Shown piece by piece: positions 8,791 to 25,579 of a stretch of 64,000 nt of DNA. The notes beneath the pieces are model-generated. The model was not told the origin of the DNA. It saw only the letters and a program-made list of their open reading frames with translations, and did no database searches. The position numbers and the translations under genes are program-made. Positions within the stretch are counted from its first letter, which is position 1. Every line of letters begins with the position of its first letter. Origin of the DNA: Ptychodera flava (lineage: Eukaryota > Hemichordata > Enteropneusta > Ptychoderidae); NCBI RefSeq assembly GCF_041260155.1, contig NC_091931.1, positions 23,953,654-24,017,653 of the forward strand. The letters are read 5' to 3'.

Positions 8791-8958
8791 TTATCCCCGG
8801 CAAGGATTGGGGCGGCGGCGGTGTGTGCGTTTCTCGCACACGAAACGACGTTTAATATGGCATCGTAGGTCGTTCCAGCGTCCACTCTTGTACATCTCCA
8901 CGCAGTCCTCGTTTTTGCGGTTGTTAGGCTCACCACGATTCCATCGTCTGTACTTGTA
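8791..8958 (-). CDS. Exon 5 of gene A: sugar-binding loop and C-terminus
   Basis: 168 nt from TAATCTAG| to the TAA stop at 8793-8791. It carries EPN in [16 protein letters not shown] in RWNDLRC, the last core Cys (RRFVC) and a basic tail with an extra cysteine (RRRPNPCRG). Confidence 0.85.
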
Positions 8959-22845: not shown

Positions 22846-25579
22846 CTACAGTACAAGCATGGATAAAAATTTTACCACATTACAAAGTTTAATATGTTTG
22901 GTACGATTTATTTTGAACTTCCTGTGCCTTCCACGTTATCAACACAATATTAATCAGGCGATGGGGATTTAAAGTACGTTGATTGTCAACAATTTCATTA
23001 TTTCTAGTATTTTTCTTTCACGGCTACGCTATGAGGTTCAGACTTTATGGCTATGTCGTTACACATGTGATCTGTAGCTGTTTGTAAATGCGTTAATTTT
23101 CTTCTCCAATGCGAATATAGCACCTTTCAAGGGTAAACCCCCCACACACACACACACAAACACACCCCCAAAGACAAATGTGACACATGCACAAAAGCAG
23201 GAATTTATCATTCTTTTTTATAACATAGGTATATTGACGAAGATATTAGACGTCACCGAATCTTTCATTAAAGATCTTTAACTCTTCATAATGAGCTTTT
23301 CATTGGAGGCTGAAAATAAGCGTCCTTACCGGAGCTCGATTGATCCATTTGAAACGTCCCTCGACACGTATGTCGTTCAAACCTATCCACAGGTTTCCGT
23401 AGCGACGTGCGTAAGCTGATTTTTTTTTAAGAAAATGACCATAAAAGAATTTTAAAAAAAACGTTAAGTCAATGATCGACATTGGAAAATGCCCCGCATT
23501 TGAAGTACAATACTGATTCTTCGGTATCTGCAAAGTGCTGTGAAGTCGGTTCAAATCACAAGGCGTCAGCTAACCTTAGTTTAACCGAATACTTTGAAAG
23601 TCTATGTTTGTCCGTCCGTCCGTCCGTCCGTCCGTCCATGATAGGCCTTTCTATCAGTTTATAAGATCATTTAATCCGTCTTGATATGAAATATGATTGC
23701 AAAACATGAAAGTAAATAACAAAAATTCCCTAACTAAGTCTGAATAATCAAAGCAGAATCCAATTCCTCATCTATCTTTCTCATCTGTTTGACGCCAAAG
23801 ACTATTTTGTTTTCAATGGTATTACCTCTGACAATGCAGTTCTGGCGGTGGTTATGGATGCTGACAAGAGTACCGCGATGTCTTCTACAAACACGTTGCG
23901 CCGTACACCAGTTGAGTCGGGCAGTAAACACCCTGTAGCACCTCCTGTGGCGGCAGACCCATCGTTTATGAGCTGTGAAAAAGGAATCAGGGAAACCAAA
24001 ACACTGCGGGGATACATATGTCATGTGACTACAATGCTACACAGTAATTTTTTTTCTCTGATTTACATACGGAACGTTTAATTCTCATGGAGGTACGGAC
24101 GAAACGTTGCTCTTACTATGATGTAACAACTTGATCAATGTAAATATTTTCTTGGAAAGAAATTGTCAAGCGTCCTCCCTATTAACAAATTTGCAAAGAG
24201 TAAAGCCGTGTGCGACCGAAAAGTAAATTTCTGTCTCCTTTGTTGCAGAAGAATGTAATTTGTCTCCGCTGTTACTTTAATTTTTGGACAAAAATATTAT
24301 GTGTTTTATGACATTTCCATCGCCGTAAGATTACAGTTGGGTTAATACCAAATGCATTATGAAAATTGTTTTCATAAAGCAGGCGAAAGCCCGATTGGTG
24401 GCAAGCACTGGTCTATGAAAACACAGCCCTGTGATAAAAGCCTTATTTTCAGTGCCCTTGTGGTACACTTTGCGCTACTCACCGCGCGACCAACTCATGG
24501 CTGCACTTTGTCCGATGCATTTGCAGACCAGTGACCGAACTAATCATTCGAATTGGTCATCAAAAGACACATAACTTGTCAGTAAACACTTACCATCTTT
24601 CACAAGGGCTTCTTCATCGACGTCTTCACTACTCTCCTCCGTCTCATCGTTGGCTGCGCTCATTTGGTGCATATCGACCTCTTCCTCCTCCGCCTCCTCA
24701 TCGACTTCTTCCTCCGCGGTTTCGCCTAGATCAGCACTTTCTGCTTCTACTTCTTCTTCTTGGACACTGCATTTATTCTGGCCGGCTGTATCAACATCTT
24801 TCACGTCCTCCTCTTCAACGCTGCGTTCATCCAGGTCGCTTTCATCGAACTCCTCCATGTCGTCTTCTTCAAAACTTCTCTCTTCCAAATCATCTTCTGA
24901 GTCTTCGAATTCTGCCTCAGACGCGATTTCAGGTATCTCTTCAACGGCAAATGCTTCGTCGATGGAAGACTCTGCTTTGGGTTCGGGGGCAGCGAAGCAT
25001 GCTGATAGTACGGCTAGTACTAACAGCGTCGTGATAACAAACACTCTCCTGAAATTAAAAATGATATCGCTAGACATAAAACGAACAGAGATATTTCCCA
25101 CGTTTATTACCCTGTATATTGTTGTAGCTCAAAAAAATACAGAACGATCAGTTTTCTTTCTCTGGAACAGGATGTAGTGTCAATAAGAAGACTATATTGC
25201 CCACGTGTCTACTTCTTAGCATATCACTTATGTTTTCTCTGTCCATCGTACATGTAGTCTCGACCAAAAATCTTCGGAGAATGGAAAGATTTCCATTAAA
25301 ACACCATGATTACTTTGGAAACAATCAATCGTTGTGTGTTTTTGGACACTGAAGCGATTCGTTAACATACTAACATGAAGAAGCGGCTTAGACTTATTGG
25401 CAGCGAATTAGTTTCATAAGAAGTAAGAAGGAAAAATAACGTAAATATCACGGTAGCTTGTTTTGAGACCAGGGGCGGACTCTGAGGTGTGTTATTCCAC
25501 TCCAATGCTGGCACACCGTGAGGCAAAATCAAAGTTAGTCGAAGTAGCAGCGTAAACGATTGAAGCAGTATACTCACAT
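22678..25579 (-). CDS. proMBP-like secreted protein B: acidic propiece plus Arg-rich C-type lectin domain (285 aa)
   Basis: Paralogue of gene A with the same five exons: AT at 25579-25578, then 25048-24594, 23972-23826, 23415-23330, 22845-22678. The propiece is 19 residues longer than in A because of an inserted acidic block that includes a cysteine (QNKCSVQEEE): 61 Asp/Glu against about 6 Lys/Arg. The lectin domain is 133 residues with 29 Arg, 5 Lys and 7 acids, and keeps [32 protein letters not shown] and RRFMC. A KR pair next to the domain boundary (KDGAHKRW) could be a processing site. Likely a secreted or granule-stored cationic lectin held neutral by its propiece; that role is inferred from the vertebrate MBP layout. 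The lectin exons differ from A far more than the start of the propiece exon does. Confidence 0.85.
23330..23415 (-). CDS. Exon 4 of gene B
   Basis: 86 nt between AAAAATCAG| and |GTAAGG. It encodes AYARRYGNLWIGLND and RFKWINRAP. Confidence 0.85.
23605..23638. repeat. (GTCC)n short tandem repeat in intron 3 of gene B
   Basis: About seven GTCC units. Not present in the matching intron of gene A. Confidence 0.85.
23826..23972 (-). CDS. Exon 3 of gene B: N-terminal half of the lectin domain
   Basis: 147 nt between TTTTTCACAG| and |GTAATA. It encodes WVCRHRRCYRVF through LVSIHNHRQNC. It has gained one cysteine (QNC) where gene A has Arg, giving an odd extra Cys. Confidence 0.85.
24594..25048 (-). 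CDS. Exon 2 of gene B: signal peptide and acidic propiece
   Basis: 455 nt between TTAATTTCAG| and |GTAAGT. The first base completes the split ATG. A longer read-through ORF starts at 25101 but would ignore the conserved acceptor, donor and promoter, and gene A has no ATG there, so I reject that start. Confidence 0.85.

What the first reader, a model, noticed from the sequence alone, without database searches (positions are those of the whole stretch)
8791..25579. Two tandem genes with a proMBP-like layout: acidic propiece followed by an Arg-rich C-type lectin domain
Seen: both gene models give signal peptide, 110-130 residues with 54-61 Asp/Glu, then a 133-residue C-type lectin domain with 29-30 Arg. 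Known: vertebrate eosinophil major basic protein (PRG2) is made as an acidic propiece plus a basic lectin-fold toxin. Inferred: in this animal a similar self-neutralising cationic protein exists, by common descent or convergence. Most invertebrate C-type lectins are neutral and lack such a propiece.
Basis: partly seen in the sequence, partly recalled or inferred. Interest (0 to 1): 0.88.

Follow-up and report, generated by a model that had tools for sequence, protein, structure and literature searches.

The report
Acidic-propiece, arginine-rich lectins in acorn worm
The acorn worm Ptychodera flava, a distant invertebrate cousin of vertebrates, carries a family of at least nine secreted lectins built like the eosinophil toxin precursor (a strongly acidic front part, then a strongly basic lectin part) but mostly with a calcium- and sugar-binding motif that the eosinophil protein lacks, so the layout probably evolved twice.

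Summary
Two five-exon minus-strand genes (12498-8791, 25579-22678) encode a signal peptide, a propiece of 113/132 aa with 54/61 Asp+Glu, and a 133-aa C-type lectin part with 30/29 Arg. Both spliced proteins equal Ptychodera flava database proteins letter for letter. They are tandem duplicates within a larger family: nine P. flava proteins share the layout (propiece net -34 to -53, mature part +13 to +49). Membership in the eosinophil major basic protein (MBP) family is not supported: no Gly in WIGL in 9 of 9; one MBP intron site is missing and one extra is present (against PMC514892); the Ca2+/sugar motif is intact in 7 of 9, whereas MBP lacks a calcium site. Whole-domain matches favour ordinary Ca2+-dependent lectins. 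Best reading: a convergent, self-masked precursor, probably cut at (K/R)R^W, releasing a cationic lectin for defence. Cleavage, sugar binding and toxicity are inferred. Rivals: mucus or adhesive coacervate; mineral-matrix lectin. Ten searches of open-licence papers listed nothing about these genes, as far as the listings showed.

The parts
8791..12498 (-). Gene A, five coding exons, 266 aa (P0001; named in the source 'C-type lectin domain family 4 member M-like')
12497..12498 (-). Gene A coding exon 1: only the AT of the start codon; the G lies in exon 2
   Evidence: Donor GTGAGT
11652..12049 (-). Gene A exon 2: signal peptide plus acidic propiece up to the first base of codon 134
   Evidence: 54 D/E of 113
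10006..10152 (-). Gene A exon 3: presumed cleavage site HKR^W and first third of the lectin domain
9509..9594 (-). Gene A exon 4: carries the WIGF motif
8791..8958 (-). Gene A exon 5: EPN, EDC, WND, C230, C244, C252 and the stop codon
22678..25579 (-). Gene B, five coding exons, 285 aa (P0002; named in the source 'low affinity immunoglobulin epsilon Fc receptor-like')
25578..25579 (-). Gene B coding exon 1: AT of the start codon
24594..25048 (-). Gene B exon 2: signal peptide plus acidic propiece, with an extra stretch relative to A
   Evidence: 61 D/E of 132; alignment
23826..23972 (-). Gene B exon 3: HKR^W and first third of the lectin domain
23330..23415 (-). Gene B exon 4: WIGL
22678..22845 (-). 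Gene B exon 5: EPN, EDC, WND and the stop codon
12598..12605 (-). TATAAAAG, candidate core promoter of gene A, about 100 bases upstream of the start codon
   Evidence: Conserved in the A/B upstream alignment; three minus-strand matches in the window, the third at 47943-47936
25676..25683 (-). TATAAAAG, candidate core promoter of gene B
6138..15328 (.). First copy of the tandem duplication that holds gene A
   Evidence: Colinear blastn blocks, mostly 74-78% identical; 87% over exons 3 and 4, 92.6% over the 5' part of exon 2
19157..28635 (.). Second copy, holding gene B
11798..12131 (-). Gene-conversion-like tract (5' 252 of the 398 bases of exon 2 plus 82 bases of intron 1), 92.6% identical to 24797-25132
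   Evidence: dS 0.08 in codons 1-84 against 0.46 in the lectin part and 0.96 in the rest of the propiece

Best explanation
Both genes make a secreted, charge-masked precursor. SHOWN in the sequence: hydrophobic N-terminus, a polyanionic propiece predicted disordered, and an Arg-rich single C-type lectin domain with the five-residue Ca2+/sugar motif (E, N, E, N, D) of mannose/GlcNAc-type lectins; the layout is kept in nine paralogues. INFERRED: during secretion the propiece masks the cationic lectin, so it does not stick to the cell's own membranes and glycans; a proprotein-convertase-like protease cuts at the conserved (K/R)R^W, and the released lectin (net +13 to +49) combines Ca2+-dependent sugar recognition with strong electrostatic binding, so that it agglutinates or damages microbes in mucus, gut or coelom. 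It works like proMBP, and like pro-Reg3, but is most likely an independent invention in the hemichordate line.
Against: No expression, proteomic or functional data were seen. Propiece and lectin charges do not co-vary across the nine and the propiece overshoots in 8 of 9, so stoichiometric neutralisation is not shown. P0015 (QPD) and P0016 (no EPN) have changed or lost the sugar motif; P0016 has RTR^W, not a dibasic site. EPN with EDC is also in nearly all of the 14 unrelated hits, so it marks ordinary lectins and is no special trait; the EPN loop lies in the less confident stretch of the model (residues 211-230, block means 67 and 73). His/Trp-rich tails of some members (P0004, P0005) and the Lys/Pro-rich tail of P0017 are not explained by a simple toxin model. 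Signal peptide and cleavage sites were judged by eye.
Confidence: 0.5

Rival explanations
1. Mucus or adhesive coacervate: the acidic and the basic part are both end products. After cleavage the polyanion and the cationic lectin condense with mucus glycans into the sticky secretion with which an enteropneust feeds and binds sediment.
For: Propiece charge exceeds the lectin charge in 8 of 9 and does not track it; S-x-E motifs, 0 to 4 per propiece, which would be kinase sites (motif meaning recalled); His/Trp/Tyr/Arg-rich tails in several members; several gene copies. Mucus habits of acorn worms are recalled, not from a call.
Against: The sugar-site motif is kept in 7 of 9, which a pure bulk polymer would not need; the A/B lectin part shows dN below dS; no expression data.
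Confidence: 0.2
2. Calcium-carbonate matrix lectin, comparable in role to the echinoderm skeletal C-type lectins, with the acidic part binding mineral.
For: Sea-urchin and brittle-star skeletons hold C-type lectins with acidic or low-complexity regions (PMC5460417 and PMC4336488, passages seen); hemichordates and echinoderms together form Ambulacraria (PMC11175523 passages). Ossicles in P. flava are recalled.
Against: The acidic repeats of sea-urchin spicule matrix proteins are described as enriched in Pro and Gly (PMC5460417); the propieces here have 3 Pro and 3 Gly of 113, and 3 Pro and 2 Gly of 132, with no repeated 5-mer in A and two short acidic ones in B. The four brittle-star lectins are listed with 4.46-5.33 in a column headed pKA, which I take as pI (PMC4336488); whole precursors here are also acidic (4.87, 4.77), but the lectin part is pI 11. 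[quoted passage not shown]
Confidence: 0.1
3. True descent from the MBP/PRG2 lineage (the common ancestor already had the acidic neck).
For: Same overall layout. A 41-residue stretch of P0003 gives MBP as the best single-domain PDB chain, 21.3 bits, E 0.0026, next to 20.9 for the Endo180 domain and below the multi-domain receptors; that stretch was picked because I remembered a resemblance there. For P0016, MBP (47.7-50.5 bits) scores level with DC-SIGN (50-52). Of the MBP intron sites, one upstream of the lectin cysteines and one downstream of WIGL are also present here in rough position.
Against: MBP is not in the best 60 of 244 matches for the P0001 lectin part, of 246 for the nine-sequence profile or of 214 for the first half of the P0001 domain; for P0016 it lies below Endo180 (75), aggrecan (66.6) and CD23 (up to 59.3). 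WIGL/WIGF not WIGG in 9 of 9. The C2-C3 intron is absent and an intron before WIGL is extra (PMC514892 passages). Ca2+ motif kept in 7 of 9.
Confidence: 0.07
4. No special mechanism: an ordinary lectin expansion in which the propiece is only a solubility or folding aid for a positively charged domain, which then acts as a plain opsonising lectin.
For: Lectin motif as in ordinary lectins, ordinary fold.
Against: The strongly basic mature part is kept in all nine although the most divergent members are only 42-46% identical to P0001.
Confidence: 0.13

Closest known systems
Eosinophil major basic protein precursors PRG2/PRG3 (C-type lectin group XII, 'acidic neck')
   Same: Signal peptide, acidic propiece, single highly basic C-type lectin domain; acidic to near-neutral whole precursor (computed pI 6.23 and 4.69 for two human sequences in PMC7119366; 4.87 and 4.77 here).
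   Different: MBP lacks a calcium site (PMC7119366, section 8 read) while 7 of 9 here keep the motif; WIGL/WIGF not WIGG; no intron between C2 and C3 and an extra one before WIGL (PMC514892 passages); His- or Lys/Pro-rich tails in some members.
Reg3 family antibacterial lectins (group VII)
   Same: Secreted single-domain lectin with an N-terminal prosegment whose removal raises activity (PMC10474034 passages).
   Different: The propiece here is over 100 residues and polyanionic; group VII is said to share the intron sites of group XII (PMC514892), which differ here. That the Reg3 prosegment is short and the lectin less basic is recalled.
CD23, aggrecan, Endo180 and DC-SIGN type lectin domains
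   Same: Nearest by whole-domain sequence among solved structures and by fold; EPN/WND motif of the type seen in CD23-like hits; database names of the genes echo them.
   Different: Receptors or proteoglycans of other architecture (recalled); two CD23-type hits here, P0009 and P0010, have net -5 over the lectin stretch.
Echinoderm spicule-matrix and skeletal C-type lectins (sea-urchin spicule matrix proteins, OwSM20-24)
   Same: Secreted ambulacrarian proteins that join a lectin domain with low-complexity, often acidic sequence.
   Different: No Pro/Gly-rich repeats here; strong opposite charges in the two parts; no tie to mineral known.

Membership tests
C-type lectin domain (Pfam PF00059) | Profile match over the domain | tested here: met
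   89.2 and 80.6 bits, cut-off 22.6; CTLD fold by predicted structure
EMBP family (group XII) | Acidic neck or propiece before a single soluble CTLD | tested here: met
   definition from PMC514892 passages
EMBP family (group XII) | Highly basic mature CTLD | tested here: met
   Net +13 to +49 in 9 of 9; the fish member in PMC514892 has a neutral one, so this is not strict
EMBP family (group XII) | Glycine at the fourth position of WIGL | tested here: not met
   WIGF in 1 and WIGL in 8 of 9; criterion from PMC514892
EMBP family (group XII) | CTLD introns upstream of C1, downstream of WIGL, and between C2 and C3 | tested here: not met
   Genes A and B only: introns at codon 134, at codon 183 (before WIGL at 192) and after codon 211; C230 to C252 uninterrupted in exon 5. 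The first and third are in the rough place of two MBP sites, exact positions not compared; the C2-C3 site is absent and the one before WIGL is extra. Criterion from PMC514892
EMBP family (group XII) | No calcium-binding site | tested here: not met
   By motif only: EPN in 7 of 9, EDC and WND in 9 of 9; Ca2+ binding itself not measured; criterion from PMC7119366
EMBP family (group XII) | Grouping with PRG2/PRG3 in a tree | not tested
   No PRG2/PRG3 sequence was held as a session protein; only PDB score ranks
EMBP family (group XII) | Closest solved fold is MBP | tested here: inconclusive
   Not among the 50 entries listed, many of which are tied
Reg family (group VII) | Intron sites as in group XII | tested here: not met
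   Genes A and B, against PMC514892
Sea-urchin spicule matrix proteins | CTLD plus acidic Pro/Gly-enriched repeats | tested here: not met
   3 Pro + 3 Gly of 113 (A), 3 Pro + 2 Gly of 132 (B); no repeated 5-mer in A, two in B; definition from PMC5460417
Mannose/GlcNAc-type Ca2+-dependent lectins | EPN with E, N, D ligands at Ca2+ site 2 | tested here: met
   Both window genes and 7 of 9 in all; ligand meaning of the motif recalled
Mannose/GlcNAc-type Ca2+-dependent lectins | Measured sugar binding | not testable with these tools
   Needs protein

The most novel reading that the evidence does not exclude
An invertebrate deuterostome independently evolved a proMBP-like weapon family: at least nine polyanion-masked, convertase-activated, Arg-rich lectins that, unlike MBP, mostly keep Ca2+-dependent sugar recognition, so the cationic charge is aimed at chosen glycans.
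Probability: 0.4. Interest if true: 0.72.

Novelty: new variant of a known kind. Interest (0 to 1): 0.58.

Why it matters
If true, it is a second origin of the acidic-mask plus basic-lectin design outside vertebrates, in a phylum where my searches listed no such effector (open-licence papers only). It would let one ask directly what the mask is for, since nine natural variants with different charge balance and intact or lost sugar sites exist in one genome. It also shows that the present database names (Fc-epsilon receptor-like, aggrecan-like, CLEC4M-like) hide a distinct secreted family.

Tried and rejected
MBP orthology: weighed and disfavoured, see rivals. The absence of MBP from the 50 listed fold rows, and from those of the first, low-confidence model (mean pLDDT 52.1; rows), is noted only as absence. 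The 41-residue query favoured MBP, but I chose that stretch because of a remembered resemblance; the first-half query of P0001 shows no MBP in the best 60 of 214.

Charge compensation across paralogues: tested, no correlation. P0023, a 259-aa protein of unnamed source with a +12 lectin stretch, was considered as an outside relative; its N-terminal part has net -2 and its branch is long, so it is left open. The tree of 23 lectin domains puts the nine P. flava rows on one side of a branch at only 78/85; in the drawn tree, where forks under 80 are open, P0017 is not joined to the other eight (95/85).

Wider family search: one search scored 22 candidates, only the 8000 sharing most words, one search scored 89. 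No hit bore the name of another hemichordate or of an echinoderm, but the tool sees only relatives sharing exact words and several hits are unnamed, so restriction to Ptychodera is not shown. No whole genome was held for the window. The paper on the Reg3 prosegment was not held, so Reg3 rests on passages of a review; in PMC3466489 only a reference-list entry was found. PMC10821951 and PMC7911577 were looked at by passages and add only that MBP is a C-type lectin that binds heparin.

Paper searches: (10 of 10 listed; 5 of 5; none found; 2 of 2; 20 of 97; 20 of 28; 15 of 896; 7 of 7; 15 of 7122), 41 (15 of 367). I judged by titles and the starts of abstracts; PMC7351957, which holds both 'Ptychodera flava' (once) and 'C-type lectin' (8 times), was not opened.

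Full report
WHAT IS THERE. The window is from Ptychodera flava, an acorn worm (hemichordate; taxonomy): both proteins spliced from the window equal P. flava database entries P0001 and P0002 over their whole length. Gene A runs 12498-8791 and gene B 25579-22678, both on the minus strand, each with five coding exons; the eight introns are GT-AG and each has the same phase in both genes. An intron splits the start codon (AT|G) in both. A TATAAAAG box lies about 100 bases upstream of each start codon inside a conserved block.

The charge pattern is as reported. Gene A: propiece 113 aa, 54 Asp/Glu, net -50; lectin part 133 aa, 30 Arg, 9 Lys, net +30. Gene B: 132 aa, 61 Asp/Glu, net -55; 133 aa, 29 Arg, 5 Lys, net +27 (signal peptide end at residue 20 judged by eye). 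Shuffling the residues never reproduced the split: 0 of 20000 for each protein. Pfam sees one domain, Lectin_C, at 89.2 and 80.6 bits.

THE LOCUS. Colinear blastn blocks place both genes in a tandem duplication, about 6.1-15.3 kb against 19.2-28.6 kb, mostly 74-78% identical, with 87% over exons 3 and 4. One tract stands out: 11798-12131 against 24797-25132 at 92.6%, covering the 5' 252 bases of exon 2 and 82 bases of intron 1. In codons 1-84 dS is 0.08, against 0.96 in the rest of the propiece and 0.46 in the lectin part; these rest on small numbers of sites, 52, 25 and 84 synonymous sites. Gene conversion is the simplest reading. The lectin part has dN 0.148 and dS 0.455, a ratio of about 0.33, which speaks for purifying selection though no test was run; 34 of 133 residues differ, yet the net charge only moves from +30 to +27.

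THE FAMILY. Three protein searches found nine P. flava proteins in all: P0001-P0005 and P0015-P0018 (5 of 14 hits; 9 of 14; 3 of 4). Each row gives a contig of 50,616,078 bases, so they probably lie on one chromosome (inference; positions of the other seven are unknown, and tblastn of P0001-P0005 finds only genes A and B in the window). Cut before the invariant W, all nine have an acidic propiece (net -34 to -53) and a basic mature part (+13 to +49). Before that W stands Arg in 9 of 9 and a dibasic pair in 8 of 9; P0017 has RVRRR, P0016 RTR. P0017 and P0018 are the most divergent, 42% and 46% identical to P0001, so the layout is not just a recent duplicate. A tree of 23 lectin domains keeps the nine on one side of a branch with modest support, 78/85; eight without P0017 hold at 95/85. 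Of the 14 other hits, 13 have a lectin stretch with net charge +4 or lower; P0023 has +12. No hit bore the name of another hemichordate or an echinoderm, but the search sees only relatives that share exact words, one search was capped at 8000 candidates, and several hits are unnamed.

IS IT MBP? PMC514892 (passages) says that the acidic neck defines the vertebrate MBP group, that mammalian MBPs have Gly at the fourth place of WIGL, and that their lectin introns are where group VII and antifreeze-like genes have them: upstream of C1, downstream of WIGL, and between C2 and C3. PMC7119366 (section 8 read) adds that MBP lacks a calcium site and that its propiece is thought to mask the mature domain. 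Here the neck and the basic domain are met. WIGL has L or F in 9 of 9. In genes A and B introns fall before the lectin cysteines, before WIGL and after WIGL, with none between C230 and C252: two sites are in rough agreement with MBP, one is missing and one is extra. The Ca2+ motif is present in 7 of 9. MBP chains are not in the best 60 for the P0001 lectin part, the profile or the first half of the P0001 domain; for P0016 they score 47.7-50.5 bits, level with DC-SIGN but below Endo180 (75), aggrecan (66.6) and CD23 (up to 59.3). One short stretch does favour MBP (21.3 bits, E 0.0026, against 20.9 for the Endo180 domain), but I picked it. PRG2/PRG3 could not be put in a tree here. So: it works like proMBP in layout and is not filed as a member.

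HOW IT MOST LIKELY WORKS. Inferred: secretion as a masked precursor; a cut at (K/R)R^W by a convertase-like protease; release of a cationic Ca2+-dependent lectin that binds microbial glycans and anionic surfaces. Reg3gamma shows the principle of an activating prosegment cut (PMC10474034 passages). Against a simple charge-cancelling mask: the propiece exceeds the lectin charge in 8 of 9, and the two do not correlate. That leaves room for a mucus or adhesive coacervate or a mineral-matrix role, given as rivals.

PRINT STATUS. Ten searches listed no paper that by title or abstract start concerns these genes; only open-licence papers are searched, and some listings were cut (see Tried and rejected). 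The chromosome-level genome paper PMC11175523 has 0 occurrences of 'lectin' in its main text (find); it reports gene models supported by RNA-seq of 16 stages and Iso-seq, but I did not see whether these two genes are among them.

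Noticed in passing
12497-12498 and 25578-25579: The start codon is split by an intron after AT in both genes; the first coding exon contributes two bases.
   Followed up: partly
11798-12131 and 24797-25132: Gene-conversion-like tract of 92.6% identity in a duplication otherwise mostly 74-78% identical.
   Followed up: partly
Proteins P0003, P0004, P0005, P0017 (not in window): Some family members carry His-rich (with Trp in P0004 and P0005) or, in P0017, also Lys/Pro-rich C-terminal tails that suggest metal binding or adhesion.
   Followed up: no
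53102-57558 +: Pieces of a broken BEL/Pao-type retroelement (Peptidase_A17, integrase zinc-binding and DUF5641 matches above cut-off; protease and reverse-transcriptase matches below it).
   Followed up: partly
40438-40812 +: Weak zinc-binding reverse-transcriptase match (zf-RVT, below cut-off), a possible LINE remnant.
   Followed up: no
10320-10406 and 10651-10737: Inverted repeat, 87 bases, 93% complementary, 244 bases apart, in intron 2 of gene A; MITE-like.
   Followed up: partly
1395-1651, 10803-11143, 18384-18729, 31340-31685: Dispersed repeat of roughly 230-350 bases in several copies at about 75-84% identity.
   Followed up: no
49299-50299: Locally repeated block of about 240-base units at about 82-92% identity.
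   Followed up: no
9086-9199: Long TC microsatellite inside intron 4 of gene A (read from the sequence; coordinates approximate).
   Followed up: no
P0023 (unnamed source): A 259-aa protein with an Arg/Trp-rich lectin stretch (+12) but no strongly acidic propiece; possible second case of a basic lectin.
   Followed up: partly
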